64,000 nucleotides of DNA from positions 1,070,995 through 1,134,994 of the forward strand of contig NZ_RQWN01000001.1 in the NCBI RefSeq assembly GCF_003977755.1, given 5' to 3'. Position 1 is the stretch's first letter. The number at the start of each line of letters is the position of its first letter. Below the pieces are notes generated by a model. It worked only from the letters and a program-made list of their open reading frames with translations, was not told the DNA's origin and made no database searches. Shown here one piece after another: positions 23,382 through 26,695 of this stretch. The DNA comes from Haloterrigena salifodinae (GTDB lineage Archaea > Halobacteriota > Halobacteria > Halobacteriales > Natrialbaceae). The translations under genes were made by a program, and so were the position numbers.

Positions 23382-23993
23382 ATGGCAAACGAGTGGATCA
23401 TCAAGGGAGACTACGTCGAAGCCTGCAACTGTGACGTCGCGTGTCAGTGCGTGTGGATGGAACCACCGGACGACGACGTCTGTACCGTCTCGCTGGCGTG
23501 GCACATCGAGGAAGGGAGCTACGGCGATGTCGACTTGAGCGGGGTGGATGTCGGCATGCTCATTTCGACCGATGAGGGCGTCATGTTCGCCCCCGAGACG
23601 GAGTGGGATATCGTGTTACTCGTCGACGAAACGGCCGATGACGACCAGCGCGAGGCCATCGAAGACATCTATTCCGGCCGCGCCGGTGGGATCTGGGCAC
23701 CCGTCGCCGATACGCACGTCCGGTCCGCCGACGTTGCGACCGTTCCGATCAGCTTCTCGCGGGACGGATCGGACTTCTCCGTCGAGATCGGGGACGCCGT
23801 CGAGATGGACGCGAGCGGCGCGGTCGGATTCAACGAGGAGGTCGGGACGGTCTCTCCCCACCCGCTGACGGAGAGCCTCGAGGTGCAGACCGGCAAGTCG
23901 GCCACGGCCACCGTCTCCTACGACGATCAGTTTACGTGGGACGTTTCCGGGAACAACGCCTACCTCGGGGACTTCGAACTGGCGAACTCCTGA
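23382..23993 (+). CDS. DUF1326 protein
   Basis: 203 residues. The family signature is at the N-terminus: an IKGDYVEACNCDVACQC segment with four cysteines in a CNC-x4-CQC arrangement, a plausible metal or Fe-S binding site. The rest is a beta-rich acidic domain. It is soluble, without a signal peptide. DUF1326 genes commonly sit beside DUF2182 membrane protein genes, as here (32 bases apart). The biochemical role is unknown; metal handling is a guess from the Cys cluster. AT-rich elements around 23340-23345 (AGCTTTATCG) may be the promoter. Confidence 0.8.
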   Translation: MANEWIIKGDYVEACNCDVACQCVWMEPPDDDVCTVSLAWHIEEGSYGDVDLSGVDVGMLISTDEGVMFAPETEWDIVLLVDETADDDQREAIEDIYSGRAGGIWAPVADTHVRSADVATVPISFSRDGSDFSVEIGDAVEMDASGAVGFNEEVGTVSPHPLTESLEVQTGKSATATVSYDDQFTWDVSGNNAYLGDFELANS

Positions 23994-24025
23994 GAACGGA
24001 ACGACGGCGATACGGACGATCTACC

Positions 24026-24817
24026 ATGGGAAGACACGACTCGTTTCGAAACCGGTTCACCCGTCGACGCGTTCCGATCGTCGCGCTCGTCACGTACGTA
24101 CTCGCGTTACTCGCCTGGGCGGCGGTCGTGGGTCGGTGGCTCCCGATGTCCGGCGGACGGATGGGGCTGCAGATGTCCGACCCGGGAGCACCGGAAGCGA
24201 TGGCCGTCTCGAACGGGCTGACCGGTATCAGCCTCTACCTGCTCATGTGGGGTGTGATGATGATCGCCATGATGTACCCCTCGTCGGTCCCGCTCTTCCG
24301 GCTGTACGCCGAGACGCTCGAGGGGACGACGATAGCGGGGAAAGGAGCACGGGTCGGGGCGTTTCTCGGAACGTACGCGCTCGTGTGGACACTGACAGGA
24401 ATCGTCCCGCTCGTCGTTAACGCGGTGGTACCGATCGTCACCCTCGCGAACGCCCACGGCGGGCTCCTGATGGGTGGGTCGTTGCTCCTCTTGTCGGGGT
24501 ACCAGCTCTCGCCGTACAAATACCGGTGTCTGCGGTATTGCCGGTCGCCGCTCGGATTCCTCATGAGTCATCACCAACCGGGAGTGCGCGGCGCCGTTCG
24601 GATGAGCTGGCAGTTCAGCGTCTTCTGCGTCGGGTGTTGTTGGGCGCTGTTCGCATTCATGGTGATCGTGGGCTCGATGAATATCGTCTGGATGGCGCTC
24701 ATCGCGGTCGTGCTCTCGCTCGAGCGAACGGTCGCGTGGGGTGAGCAACTAGCACGAGTAGTCGGAGTTCTCGCCGGCGCCGCCGGAAGTACCGTCATCG
24801 TGATCGCACTGGTCTAG
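24026..24817 (+). CDS. DUF2182 membrane protein
   Basis: 263 residues with about seven hydrophobic spans. Family motifs are the Met-rich LLMWGVMMIAMMYPSSVPLF and YKYRCLRYCRSPLGFLMSHH, followed by CVGCCWALFAFM. The dense Met, Cys and His residues in and near the membrane suggest a soft-metal (copper-like) ligand set. The ATG at 24026 (MGRHDSFRNR) is preferred over longer upstream extensions that would overlap the DUF1326 gene. It probably works with DUF1326 as a two-part system; function not established. Confidence 0.8.
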   Translation: MGRHDSFRNRFTRRRVPIVALVTYVLALLAWAAVVGRWLPMSGGRMGLQMSDPGAPEAMAVSNGLTGISLYLLMWGVMMIAMMYPSSVPLFRLYAETLEGTTIAGKGARVGAFLGTYALVWTLTGIVPLVVNAVVPIVTLANAHGGLLMGGSLLLLSGYQLSPYKYRCLRYCRSPLGFLMSHHQPGVRGAVRMSWQFSVFCVGCCWALFAFMVIVGSMNIVWMALIAVVLSLERTVAWGEQLARVVGVLAGAAGSTVIVIALV

Positions 24818-24917
24818 CAGTAGTGTTACGGTGTATTTTGAAGCGCGTGAGGGAGCGGACACCTACTCATCCCGGGGAATTCAGTAGGTGTTCTGATAGT
24901 ACAGGACCGACAAAATA

Positions 24918-24960
24918 GATTTAGGCTCCCCAAAAGTATTCAGTACCTGAAAGGTATATG
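24918..24960 (+). promoter_or_regulatory. dpsA upstream control region, possible DtxR-family site
   Basis: TTTAGGCTCCCCAAAA at 24920-24935 is an imperfect palindrome with one TTAGGC half-site like those bound by haloarchaeal iron regulators of the DtxR family. GGTATATGAAG at 24953 is a likely TATA element, about 30 bases before the ATG at 24986. The rest of the 24818-24985 gap shows no gene. Confidence 0.35.
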
Positions 24961-24985
24961 AAGGTCGAGCGATTACATCCATGCA

Positions 24986-25534
24986 ATGAGTTCCCAAGAG
25001 ACAACCGTCCGTCAACAGGCAGGCACCGTCGATGAAAACGCTCTCCGACTCGATCAAGACAAAGCCGAGCAGGTCGTCGAGGCGCTAAACTCCGAACTGG
25101 CGAACTCGTACGTCCTCTACCACCAACTCAAGAAACACCACTGGGTCGTCGAAGGCGCAGAGTTCCTCCCGCTTCACGAGTTCCTCGAGGACGCCTACGA
25201 ACACGTCGAAGAGGGGGCCGACGAAATCGCCGAGCGTGCGCAGGCGCTGGGCGGCGTCCCCGTCTCGGGCCCAACAAACCTCGAGGACCGCGCCACCGTC
25301 GAGTTCGAGGGAGAAGACGTCTACGACGTCCGCACGATGTTCGAGAATGATCTTGAAATGTACGGCGACATCATCGAGTCGATGCGCGACAGCATCGAAC
25401 TCGCCGAGAACCTCGGTGACCCTGCGACCGGCGAGATGTTACGTGAGATCCTCGTCCACCTCGAGGAAGACGGTCACCACTTCGAGCACTACCTCGAAGA
25501 CGACACGCTGGTCCTCGAGAGTGCCACTCACTGA
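24986..25534 (+). CDS. dpsA: DNA protection/ferritin-like protein DpsA
   Basis: 182 residues, the size of haloarchaeal DpsA. It stores iron in a dodecamer and protects DNA from peroxide. All four inter-subunit ferroxidase ligands of the Halobacterium protein are in place, at the same numbering: His52 (KKHHW), His64 (LPLHEF), Asp79 and Glu83 (ADEIAER). The C-terminus (EEDGHHFEHYLEDDTLV) is acidic. The likely start is the ATG at 24986; an ATG five bases earlier is out of frame. First of three tandem family members. Confidence 0.95.
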   Translation: MSSQETTVRQQAGTVDENALRLDQDKAEQVVEALNSELANSYVLYHQLKKHHWVVEGAEFLPLHEFLEDAYEHVEEGADEIAERAQALGGVPVSGPTNLEDRATVEFEGEDVYDVRTMFENDLEMYGDIIESMRDSIELAENLGDPATGEMLREILVHLEEDGHHFEHYLEDDTLVLESATH

Positions 25535-25547
25535 ATAGGTGACCGAA

Positions 25548-26129
25548 ATGGCACAAAAACAAGGCCGACTCGTTCGGGAACCCGATACGGGCGAGCGCCG
25601 TCAAGAGTGGGGCACTATCGCCGAAAACGAACTCCGGATCCACCCCGCCGATGCCGAGGTGATCATCGACGCCTTGAGCATCGACCATGCGGGATCGTTC
25701 AACCTGTTCTACCTGCTTCGCAAGCATTACTGGACTGCTGCAGGTGCCGAACACGAGGCGGTTGCTACCTTCCTCGAGGACGCGTACAAGCGCGTGCGCG
25801 AGGTTAACGACGAGGTCGCGATTCGGATCGTTGAACTGGGCGGGATTCCCCCGAACACACCGCCGACACTGCAGGAACGGGCCGAAGTCCACCTCGAGGC
25901 CGAGGATCTCTACGACCTTCGTGCCTCTTTGAAGGGCGATCTCGAGGGATATTCGACCCTGATCGTCAGCATGCGTGAACACGTCGCTCTTGCGGAAGAG
26001 AAAGCCGACCCGGGCACGGCCGAACTGCTCCGTGACCGCCTCGAAGGCCTCGAAGAGGACGCTCACATCATCGAGCAATTACTCGAAGATGACACGCTCG
26101 TTCGAGCTGAGGTGCTGAAGGAACGATGA
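25548..26129 (+). CDS. Dps-like paralogue lacking most ferroxidase ligands, copy 2
   Basis: 193 residues, a four-helix ferritin-like protein clearly related to DpsA. Aligned to DpsA, three of four ferroxidase ligands are changed: His52 is Tyr (RKHYW), His64 is Ala (EAVATF) and Glu83 is Ile (NDEVAIR); only the Asp remains. It has an N-terminal extension with RRQEWGTIAENELRI, shared with copy 3. Start chosen at the ATG at 25548, with AGGTGA six bases upstream; a GTG at 25539 is possible. Expected to form cages or mixed cages but not to oxidise iron by the usual centre. Confidence 0.85.
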   Translation: MAQKQGRLVREPDTGERRQEWGTIAENELRIHPADAEVIIDALSIDHAGSFNLFYLLRKHYWTAAGAEHEAVATFLEDAYKRVREVNDEVAIRIVELGGIPPNTPPTLQERAEVHLEAEDLYDLRASLKGDLEGYSTLIVSMREHVALAEEKADPGTAELLRDRLEGLEEDAHIIEQLLEDDTLVRAEVLKER

Positions 26130-26695
26130 TGAGAACACCCCATCTCTGGAGCCCCGACTCGTCTCACATCCGTCAGGAATGGGACACGGTAGCTGACAAC
26201 GGGCTCCGACTCGAACAGAACGTTGCCGAAGAGTTGGTCAGGGCCTTGAACAGCGAAGTATCGGGACTGTATATCCTCTTCAACCAGGTGCGCAAGCATT
26301 ACTGGCTCGTCGAGGGGACCGAATCGAAGCCGATCAGTGACTTCCTCGAGGATGCTGCCAACCGTCTCACGGAGATGACCGACGACATCGCCATTCGGAT
26401 CACCGCGCTCGGCGGTGTCCCAGCCTGCGGGCCGATGGGTATCCGCCAACACGCGCCGATATACATCGAGGACGCCCATCACTACGATATCCGGTCGTCG
26501 CTCGAGCGTGACCTCGATGGGTACGCGACGCTCGCAGTGCAGTGGCGCGAACACATCGAACTGGCGGACCGACTCGGGGATACGGCGACGAGCGAACTCC
26601 TGCGCCGCCATCTCGAGACGCTCGAAGCGGACGCTCACGTCCTCGATCGGTACCTCGCTGACGATACGCTCGTTCGTCACGACGCAACGAGGTGA
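26126..26695 (+). CDS. Dps-like paralogue lacking most ferroxidase ligands, copy 3
   Basis: 189 residues. It overlaps copy 2 by ATGA, so the two are co-translated. The DpsA ligand positions read Tyr (RKHYW), Ser (KPISDF), Asp (kept) and Ile (TDDIAIR): the same kind of loss as in copy 2. The N-terminal IRQEWDTVADNGLRL block matches the extension of copy 2, showing that these two form their own subfamily. The acidic C-terminus LADDTLVRHDATR resembles that of DpsA. Possibly a structural partner of DpsA or a DNA-binding cage. Confidence 0.85.
   Translation: MMRTPHLWSPDSSHIRQEWDTVADNGLRLEQNVAEELVRALNSEVSGLYILFNQVRKHYWLVEGTESKPISDFLEDAANRLTEMTDDIAIRITALGGVPACGPMGIRQHAPIYIEDAHHYDIRSSLERDLDGYATLAVQWREHIELADRLGDTATSELLRRHLETLEADAHVLDRYLADDTLVRHDATR

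What the first reader, a model, noticed from the sequence alone, without database searches (positions are those of the whole stretch)
24986..26695. Three tandem dps genes, two of which lost three of four ferroxidase ligands
DpsA keeps His52, His64, Asp79 and Glu83. In both downstream paralogues these are Tyr, Ala or Ser, Asp, Ile. The two share an N-terminal block (QEW-x-T-x-A-x-N) absent from DpsA. Parallel loss with fold kept suggests a new role: structural subunits of mixed cages, DNA binding, or metal-free stress proteins.
Basis: partly seen in the sequence, partly recalled or inferred. Interest (0 to 1): 0.72.

Follow-up and report, generated by a model that had tools for sequence, protein, structure and literature searches.

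The report
Paired Dps proteins without ferroxidase sites
Some salt-loving archaea carry a pair of iron-cage (Dps) proteins that lost the iron-oxidising site once, have stayed together ever since and are fused in two species, so they probably build a two-component cage with a job other than iron oxidation.

Summary
The window is haloarchaeal (96% identity to Haloterrigena salina for the middle protein). It holds dpsA, dps2 and dps3 in one tight run. The ligand observation is right for this genome: DpsA has H52/H64/D79/E83, Dps2 has Y/A/D/I, Dps3 has Y/S/D/I. Two details are wrong. The N-terminal block is not absent from DpsA (RQQAGTVDEN aligns with RQEWGTIAEN; the marker is Trp12). The loss was not parallel: Dps2 and Dps3 are sister clades (100% SH-aLRT), so both His ligands most simply went once, before they split. 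Glu83 went later, and 10 of 47 Dps2 sequences keep it. The conserved unit is the dps2-dps3 pair, not the trio. It occurs in 37 of 392 sampled Halobacteriales genomes, always with both genes adjacent and, in 47 distinct loci, in the same order. dpsA sits directly upstream in 28 of the 47. No other neighbour is conserved across genera. In two Halogranum species dps2 and dps3 form one reading frame. The best reading is an obligate 1:1 Dps2:Dps3 heteromer with the Dps fold, no ferroxidase centre and a role that complements DpsA. Assembly, DNA binding and iron chemistry are untested.

The parts
24840..24985 (+). presumed promoter region of the trio: conserved TTTAGG..CCC.AAAA and CTGAAAGGTATA (BRE/TATA-like) blocks just upstream of dpsA
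   Evidence: conserved across nine Natrialbaceae trio loci; function inferred
24986..25534 (+). dpsA: canonical DpsA with H52, H64, D79, E83
   Evidence: NF041388 294 bits; 1MOJ/1TJO E 6e-65; ligands 100% in 41 DpsA sequences
25548..26129 (+). dps2: ferroxidase-silent Dps paralogue (Y52, A64, D79, I83; R75 replaces E75); ATG start favoured over the GTG at 25539
   Evidence: PF00210 67 bits; fold model; 47 orthologues
26126..26695 (+). dps3: ferroxidase-silent Dps paralogue (Y52, S64, D79, I83; position 72 is Asp in 95% of the family, Asn here; conserved GGVP-C/N-GPMGIRQHAP loop), overlapping dps2 by 4 bp
   Evidence: PF00210 66 bits; 47 orthologues always downstream of dps2 on the same strand

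Best explanation
Dps2 and Dps3 are two halves of an obligate 1:1 heteromer with the Dps (mini-ferritin) fold, most likely a 6+6 dodecameric cage, that has no di-iron ferroxidase centre. They arose from one haloarchaeal DpsA copy that lost the two His ligands. That copy then duplicated in tandem; Dps3, and later most Dps2 lineages, also lost Glu83, and the old metal site was rebuilt without metal ligands (E75 to Arg in Dps2, Asp at 72 in nearly all Dps3, mostly a hydrophobic residue at 83). The pair probably works as a ferroxidase-free shell that complements DpsA, the enzyme that oxidises iron. Shown: sequence states, sister relation of Dps2 and Dps3, obligate pairing, fused forms, purifying selection, predicted monomer fold. 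Inferred: heteromeric assembly, 6+6 stoichiometry, cage formation and the physiological role.
For: Pair adjacent in 37 of 37 genomes (37 of 392 with Dps3; 35 with Dps2 at the same cut-off; the other two have dps2 next door, one more divergent at 180 bits and one broken by a frameshift). Same strand and order in 47 of 47 distinct loci, usually overlapping or within 11 nt. Fused in frame in two Halogranum species whose proteins are 65% identical, with different linkers. No other neighbour conserved across genera. Dps2 and Dps3 each monophyletic and sisters, with matching basal branches. dN/dS 0.17 and 0.20. Ligand columns. Fold. Sites fixed differently in Dps2 and Dps3 lie mostly in helices A/B and the BC loop, which from knowledge of Dps structures form the two-fold interface (6 of 7 sites, Fisher p 0.018, small numbers and my own cut-offs).
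Against: No biochemical data. The AlphaFold model of the fused protein does not fix the placement of the two halves (pTM 0.45), so the heterodimer itself is not shown. Tandem pairing and fusion can also arise from co-regulation alone. The interface argument rests on seven sites.
Confidence: 0.6

Rival explanations
1. Dps2 and Dps3 are L-type subunits that mix with DpsA in one three-component cage. DpsA oxidises iron, the other two dilute the active sites or tune the cavity, as L-ferritin and Bfr2 do in mixed ferritin cages.
For: dpsA lies directly upstream in 28 of 47 loci, usually within 16 nt. The dpsA copies beside the pair are not one clade (AU p 0.018), so a dpsA seems to have been joined to the pair more than once. 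Heteromeric bacterioferritins with one ferroxidase-dead subunit are known (PMC6529640; PMC12120770).
Against: About 19 of 47 loci show no directly adjacent dpsA (one of them is cut at the contig end), and the fusions join only Dps2 and Dps3. The several-origins result could reflect gene conversion and thin sampling of lone copies (14 rows).
Confidence: 0.25
2. The pair is a DNA- or nucleoid-binding protein that keeps the Dps shell and has dropped iron chemistry.
For: Deinococcus geothermalis Dgeo_0257 is a multimeric Dps-like protein without ferroxidase ligands that binds DNA well (PMC9820295). Dps3 and Dps2 are much less acidic than DpsA (mean net charge -14, -22 and -33).
Against: Both proteins are still acidic and their N-terminal tails are not Lys-rich (net -3 and -1 over 35 residues). 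Dgeo_0257 shares only 11.5% identity with its paralogue, so it is a weak analogue.
Confidence: 0.15
3. A new metal site elsewhere restores iron or copper chemistry, for example at the conserved Cys94/Met97/His102 loop of Dps3 or His106 of Dps2.
For: Dps3 positions 94-104 are strongly conserved (C 76%, M 95%, H 93%) and Dps2 H106 is 89%.
Against: Cys94 is Asn in 21% of Dps3 sequences; no full di-metal ligand set appears at the old interface; the same loop conservation is expected for a subunit interface.
Confidence: 0.1
4. Decaying duplicates with no function.
For: One genome has a frameshifted dps2 (L103/L106), and two loci have an insertion between the genes.
Against: dN/dS 0.17-0.20, 100% retention of the pair, and spread over 18 genera.
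Confidence: 0.02

Closest known systems
HsDpsA of Halobacterium salinarum (PDB 1MOJ/1TJO)
   Same: Same family, fold and residue numbering; closest solved relative by sequence of Dps2 (E 1e-35) and of the trio's DpsA (E 6e-65).
   Different: HsDpsA keeps all four ferroxidase ligands and is a single gene product; its mineral-nucleating Glu154 (PMC12532284) is mostly Asp/Glu in Dps2 but variable in Dps3, Arg in the window.
Heteromeric bacterioferritins (Magnetospirillum Bfr1/Bfr2, Shewanella SoBfr12)
   Same: Tandem duplicates of a cage ferritin in which one partner lost ferroxidase ligands; shown to co-assemble (PMC6529640, PMC12120770).
   Different: 24-mer haem ferritins in bacteria; there one subunit stays catalytic. 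Here both members of the pair lost the site, the fold is Dps, and the catalytic DpsA is an optional third gene.
Deinococcus geothermalis Dgeo_0257
   Same: Dps-like protein without ferroxidase ligands next to a normal Dps in the same genome (PMC9820295).
   Different: Single protein, 11.5% identity to its paralogue, not reported as part of a pair, different phylum.
His-type ferroxidase Dps of cyanobacteria (NpDps4, TeDpsA)
   Same: Dps subclass with a non-standard site (PMC6675082); NpDps4 matches the Dps2 model at Z 24.5.
   Different: Those keep an altered but active metal centre; Dps2 and Dps3 have lost the His ligands.
Listeria innocua Dps H31G/H43G mutant (PDB 2BJY)
   Same: The same two His positions removed; the crystal structure exists (listed).
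   Different: An engineered mutant; here the loss is natural and ancient. That 31/43 match 52/64 is from memory.

Membership tests
Dps family (PF00210, Dps branch) | Ferritin-like four-helix bundle with BC helix | tested here: met
   PF00210 67 and 66 bits against a cut-off of 24.5; Dps2 model Z 24.1 to 1MOJ
Dps family (PF00210, Dps branch) | Inter-subunit ferroxidase ligands His, His, Asp, Glu | tested here: not met
   Dps2 and Dps3 keep only Asp79 in this genome
Dps family (PF00210, Dps branch) | Dodecameric cage | not testable with these tools
   no multimer prediction on hand; fused-chain model left the domain placement open
Haloarchaeal DpsA (NCBIfam NF041388, equivalog) | Score above the curated cut-off (170 bits) | tested here: met
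   294, 176.4 and 191.9 bits
Haloarchaeal DpsA (NCBIfam NF041388, equivalog) | Ferroxidase site of DpsA | tested here: not met
   ligands absent in Dps2 and Dps3; separate sister clades, so the equivalog label is doubtful for them
DNA-binding Dps (E. coli type) | Lys-rich N-terminal tail | tested here: not met
   N-terminal 35 residues net -1 and -3; this does not exclude other modes of DNA binding
Heteromeric ferritin (tandem-duplicate type) | Tandem duplicate genes, conserved as a pair | tested here: met
   47 of 47 loci; sister clades
Heteromeric ferritin (tandem-duplicate type) | Physical co-assembly of the two subunits | not testable with these tools
   supported indirectly by two natural fusions
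Heteromeric bacterioferritin | Bfr-type family membership | tested here: not met
   Dps2 and Dps3 score as DpsA-type and not as TIGR00754 Bfr and nest with haloarchaeal DpsA
Heteromeric bacterioferritin | Haem-ligand Met at the subunit interface | not tested
   not examined

The most novel reading that the evidence does not exclude
A naturally obligate heteromeric Dps: two sister subunits, both without a ferroxidase centre, form a 6+6 mini-ferritin shell, in some species as one fused chain, whose role is not iron oxidation.
Probability: 0.45. Interest if true: 0.75.

Novelty: new variant of a known kind. Interest (0 to 1): 0.6.

Why it matters
[quoted passage not shown] A conserved pair that lost the site once and never separates makes a clean natural test of what the Dps shell does without iron oxidation, and gives a two-component or single-chain cage for engineering. 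It also shows that three different proteins are being annotated as DpsA in haloarchaeal genomes.

Tried and rejected
Fused-chain AlphaFold model (A4): both halves fold as helical bundles but pTM is 0.45, so domain placement is not informative. A mixed alignment of Dps2 and Dps3 rows with the fusions stacked all rows on one half and was not used. No conserved partner gene outside the Dps genes was found within about 6 kb across genera; the DUF1326/PpoB2 genes upstream in the window are therefore not counted as part of the system. Phylum-wide sampling found orthologues only in the same order (6 of 393). The H. salinarum DpsA structure paper is not in the library. Literature searches found no report of this pair or of a heteromeric Dps, but subscription journals are not covered. 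Decay was rejected by dN/dS and retention.

Full report
Setting. The window lies in a 4.96 Mb haloarchaeal genome. Its Dps2 is 96% identical to that of Haloterrigena salina. Three Dps ORFs follow each other: dpsA 24986-25534, dps2 25548-26129 and dps3 26126-26695, the last two overlapping by 4 bp. The genome holds two more DpsA-like genes elsewhere.

Checking the observation. All three proteins hit the ferritin-like domain PF00210 and the NCBI DpsA model NF041388 above its cut-off. In HsDpsA numbering the ligand positions 52/64/79/83 read H/H/D/E in DpsA, Y/A/D/I in Dps2 and Y/S/D/I in Dps3. Across relatives, DpsA keeps all four in 41 of 41 sequences. H64 is never present in 47 Dps2 or 47 Dps3 sequences; position 52 is mostly Tyr (43 of 47 and 35 of 47); E83 is kept in 10 of 47 Dps2 and in none of the Dps3. 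So 'three of four lost' holds for this genome but not for every Dps2. The N-terminal block is alignable in DpsA and differs mainly by Trp12.

One loss, not two. A tree of 100 sequences puts Dps2 and Dps3 each in one clade (98 and 99% SH-aLRT) and joins them as sisters (100%), away from DpsA. The root outgroup is very long, so only the relation Dps2+Dps3 against DpsA is used. With this tree the simplest history is loss of both His ligands in the common ancestor, a tandem duplication, loss of E83 in Dps3, and later loss in most Dps2 lineages.

The unit is the pair. In 392 sampled genomes of the order, 37 have Dps3 and 35 have Dps2 at the same strict cut-off. The two odd genomes have a dps2 directly upstream of dps3, one divergent (180 bits) and one broken by a frameshift. 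In 47 distinct loci the pair is always on one strand in the order dps2-dps3, mostly overlapping or within 11 nt. dpsA is directly upstream in 28 of them. No other gene is conserved nearby across genera. The trio also occurs on a 603 kb Halarchaeum plasmid, where all three genes are annotated dpsA. Phylum-wide sampling found it only in this order.

Fusion. In Halogranum amylolyticum (L013) and H. rubrum (L026) dps2 and dps3 are one open reading frame joined by hydrophilic linkers of different length; the two fused proteins are 65% identical. Two species with different linkers make an assembly artefact unlikely. A fused form implies equal amounts of the two and is the strongest sign that they act in one complex.

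State of the old metal site. Next to the lost ligands, E75 (100% in DpsA) is Arg in 97% of Dps2 and Ser/Thr/Ala in Dps3; E72 is Lys/Arg/Gln in most Dps2 and Asp in 95% of Dps3 (Asn in the window); D79 stays. An Arg four residues before Asp79 on the same helix could neutralise it (inference). No alternative set of ligands is visible there. Glu154, which nucleates the iron cluster in HsDpsA (PMC12532284), is mostly acidic in Dps2 and variable in Dps3, Arg in the window.

Fold and selection. Dps2 is predicted with mean pLDDT 81.9 and pTM 0.77 and matches HsDpsA at Z 24.1 and 1.9 A over 167 residues. Dps3 was not modelled alone; in the fused-chain model its half also forms the helical bundle, and the best PDB match of that model is HsDpsA. 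Median dN/dS among nine close relatives is 0.10 for DpsA, 0.17 for Dps2 and 0.20 for Dps3: the proteins are kept. Mean net charge goes from -33 (DpsA) to -22 (Dps2) and -14 (Dps3); tails are not Lys-rich.

Link with DpsA. The dpsA copies next to the pair are not one clade (AU p 0.018): the Natrialbaceae copies group with ordinary Natrialbaceae DpsA. Recruitment of a local dpsA more than once, or gene conversion, would both explain this. Sampling of lone copies is thin, so this is only a hint that DpsA and the pair work in the same process.

Mechanism. The best reading is a Dps2:Dps3 heteromer with the Dps shell and no ferroxidase centre, complementing DpsA. Co-assembly with DpsA into a mixed cage is the main rival; DNA binding and a new metal site are weaker. 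Precedents for ferroxidase-dead partners exist in heteromeric bacterioferritins (PMC6529640; PMC12120770) and for a ligand-less Dps-like protein in Deinococcus (PMC9820295); the held literature showed no heteromeric Dps pair. Assembly and function remain untested.

Noticed in passing
24986-26695 and related loci: NCBIfam equivalog NF041388 (DpsA) catches Dps2 and Dps3 just above its cut-off, and a plasmid trio has all three genes labelled DpsA.
   Followed up: yes
24900-24985: Upstream of dpsA a TTTAGG..CCC.AAAA block and a CTGAAAGGTATA block are conserved across nine Natrialbaceae trio loci; the first resembles an iron-repressor (DtxR-type) site, from memory.
   Followed up: partly
L010 6580-6946 and L049 2080-2701: Insertions between dps2 and dps3 are bounded by CCCACGACT..AGTCGTGGG hairpins and look like small IS200/IS605-type elements; both genes stay open.
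   Followed up: no
L106 (G237) 1040-1728: dps2 is split over two frames in this genome, next to intact dpsA and dps3.
   Followed up: no
23382-24817: DUF1326 (PF07040) and PpoB2-type copper chaperone (PF09948) genes lie just upstream of dpsA on the same strand; not conserved with the pair across genera.
   Followed up: partly
Dps2, Dps3 and DpsA families: Net charge differs consistently between the three families (-22, -14 and -33 on average), although all work in the same high-salt cytoplasm.
   Followed up: no
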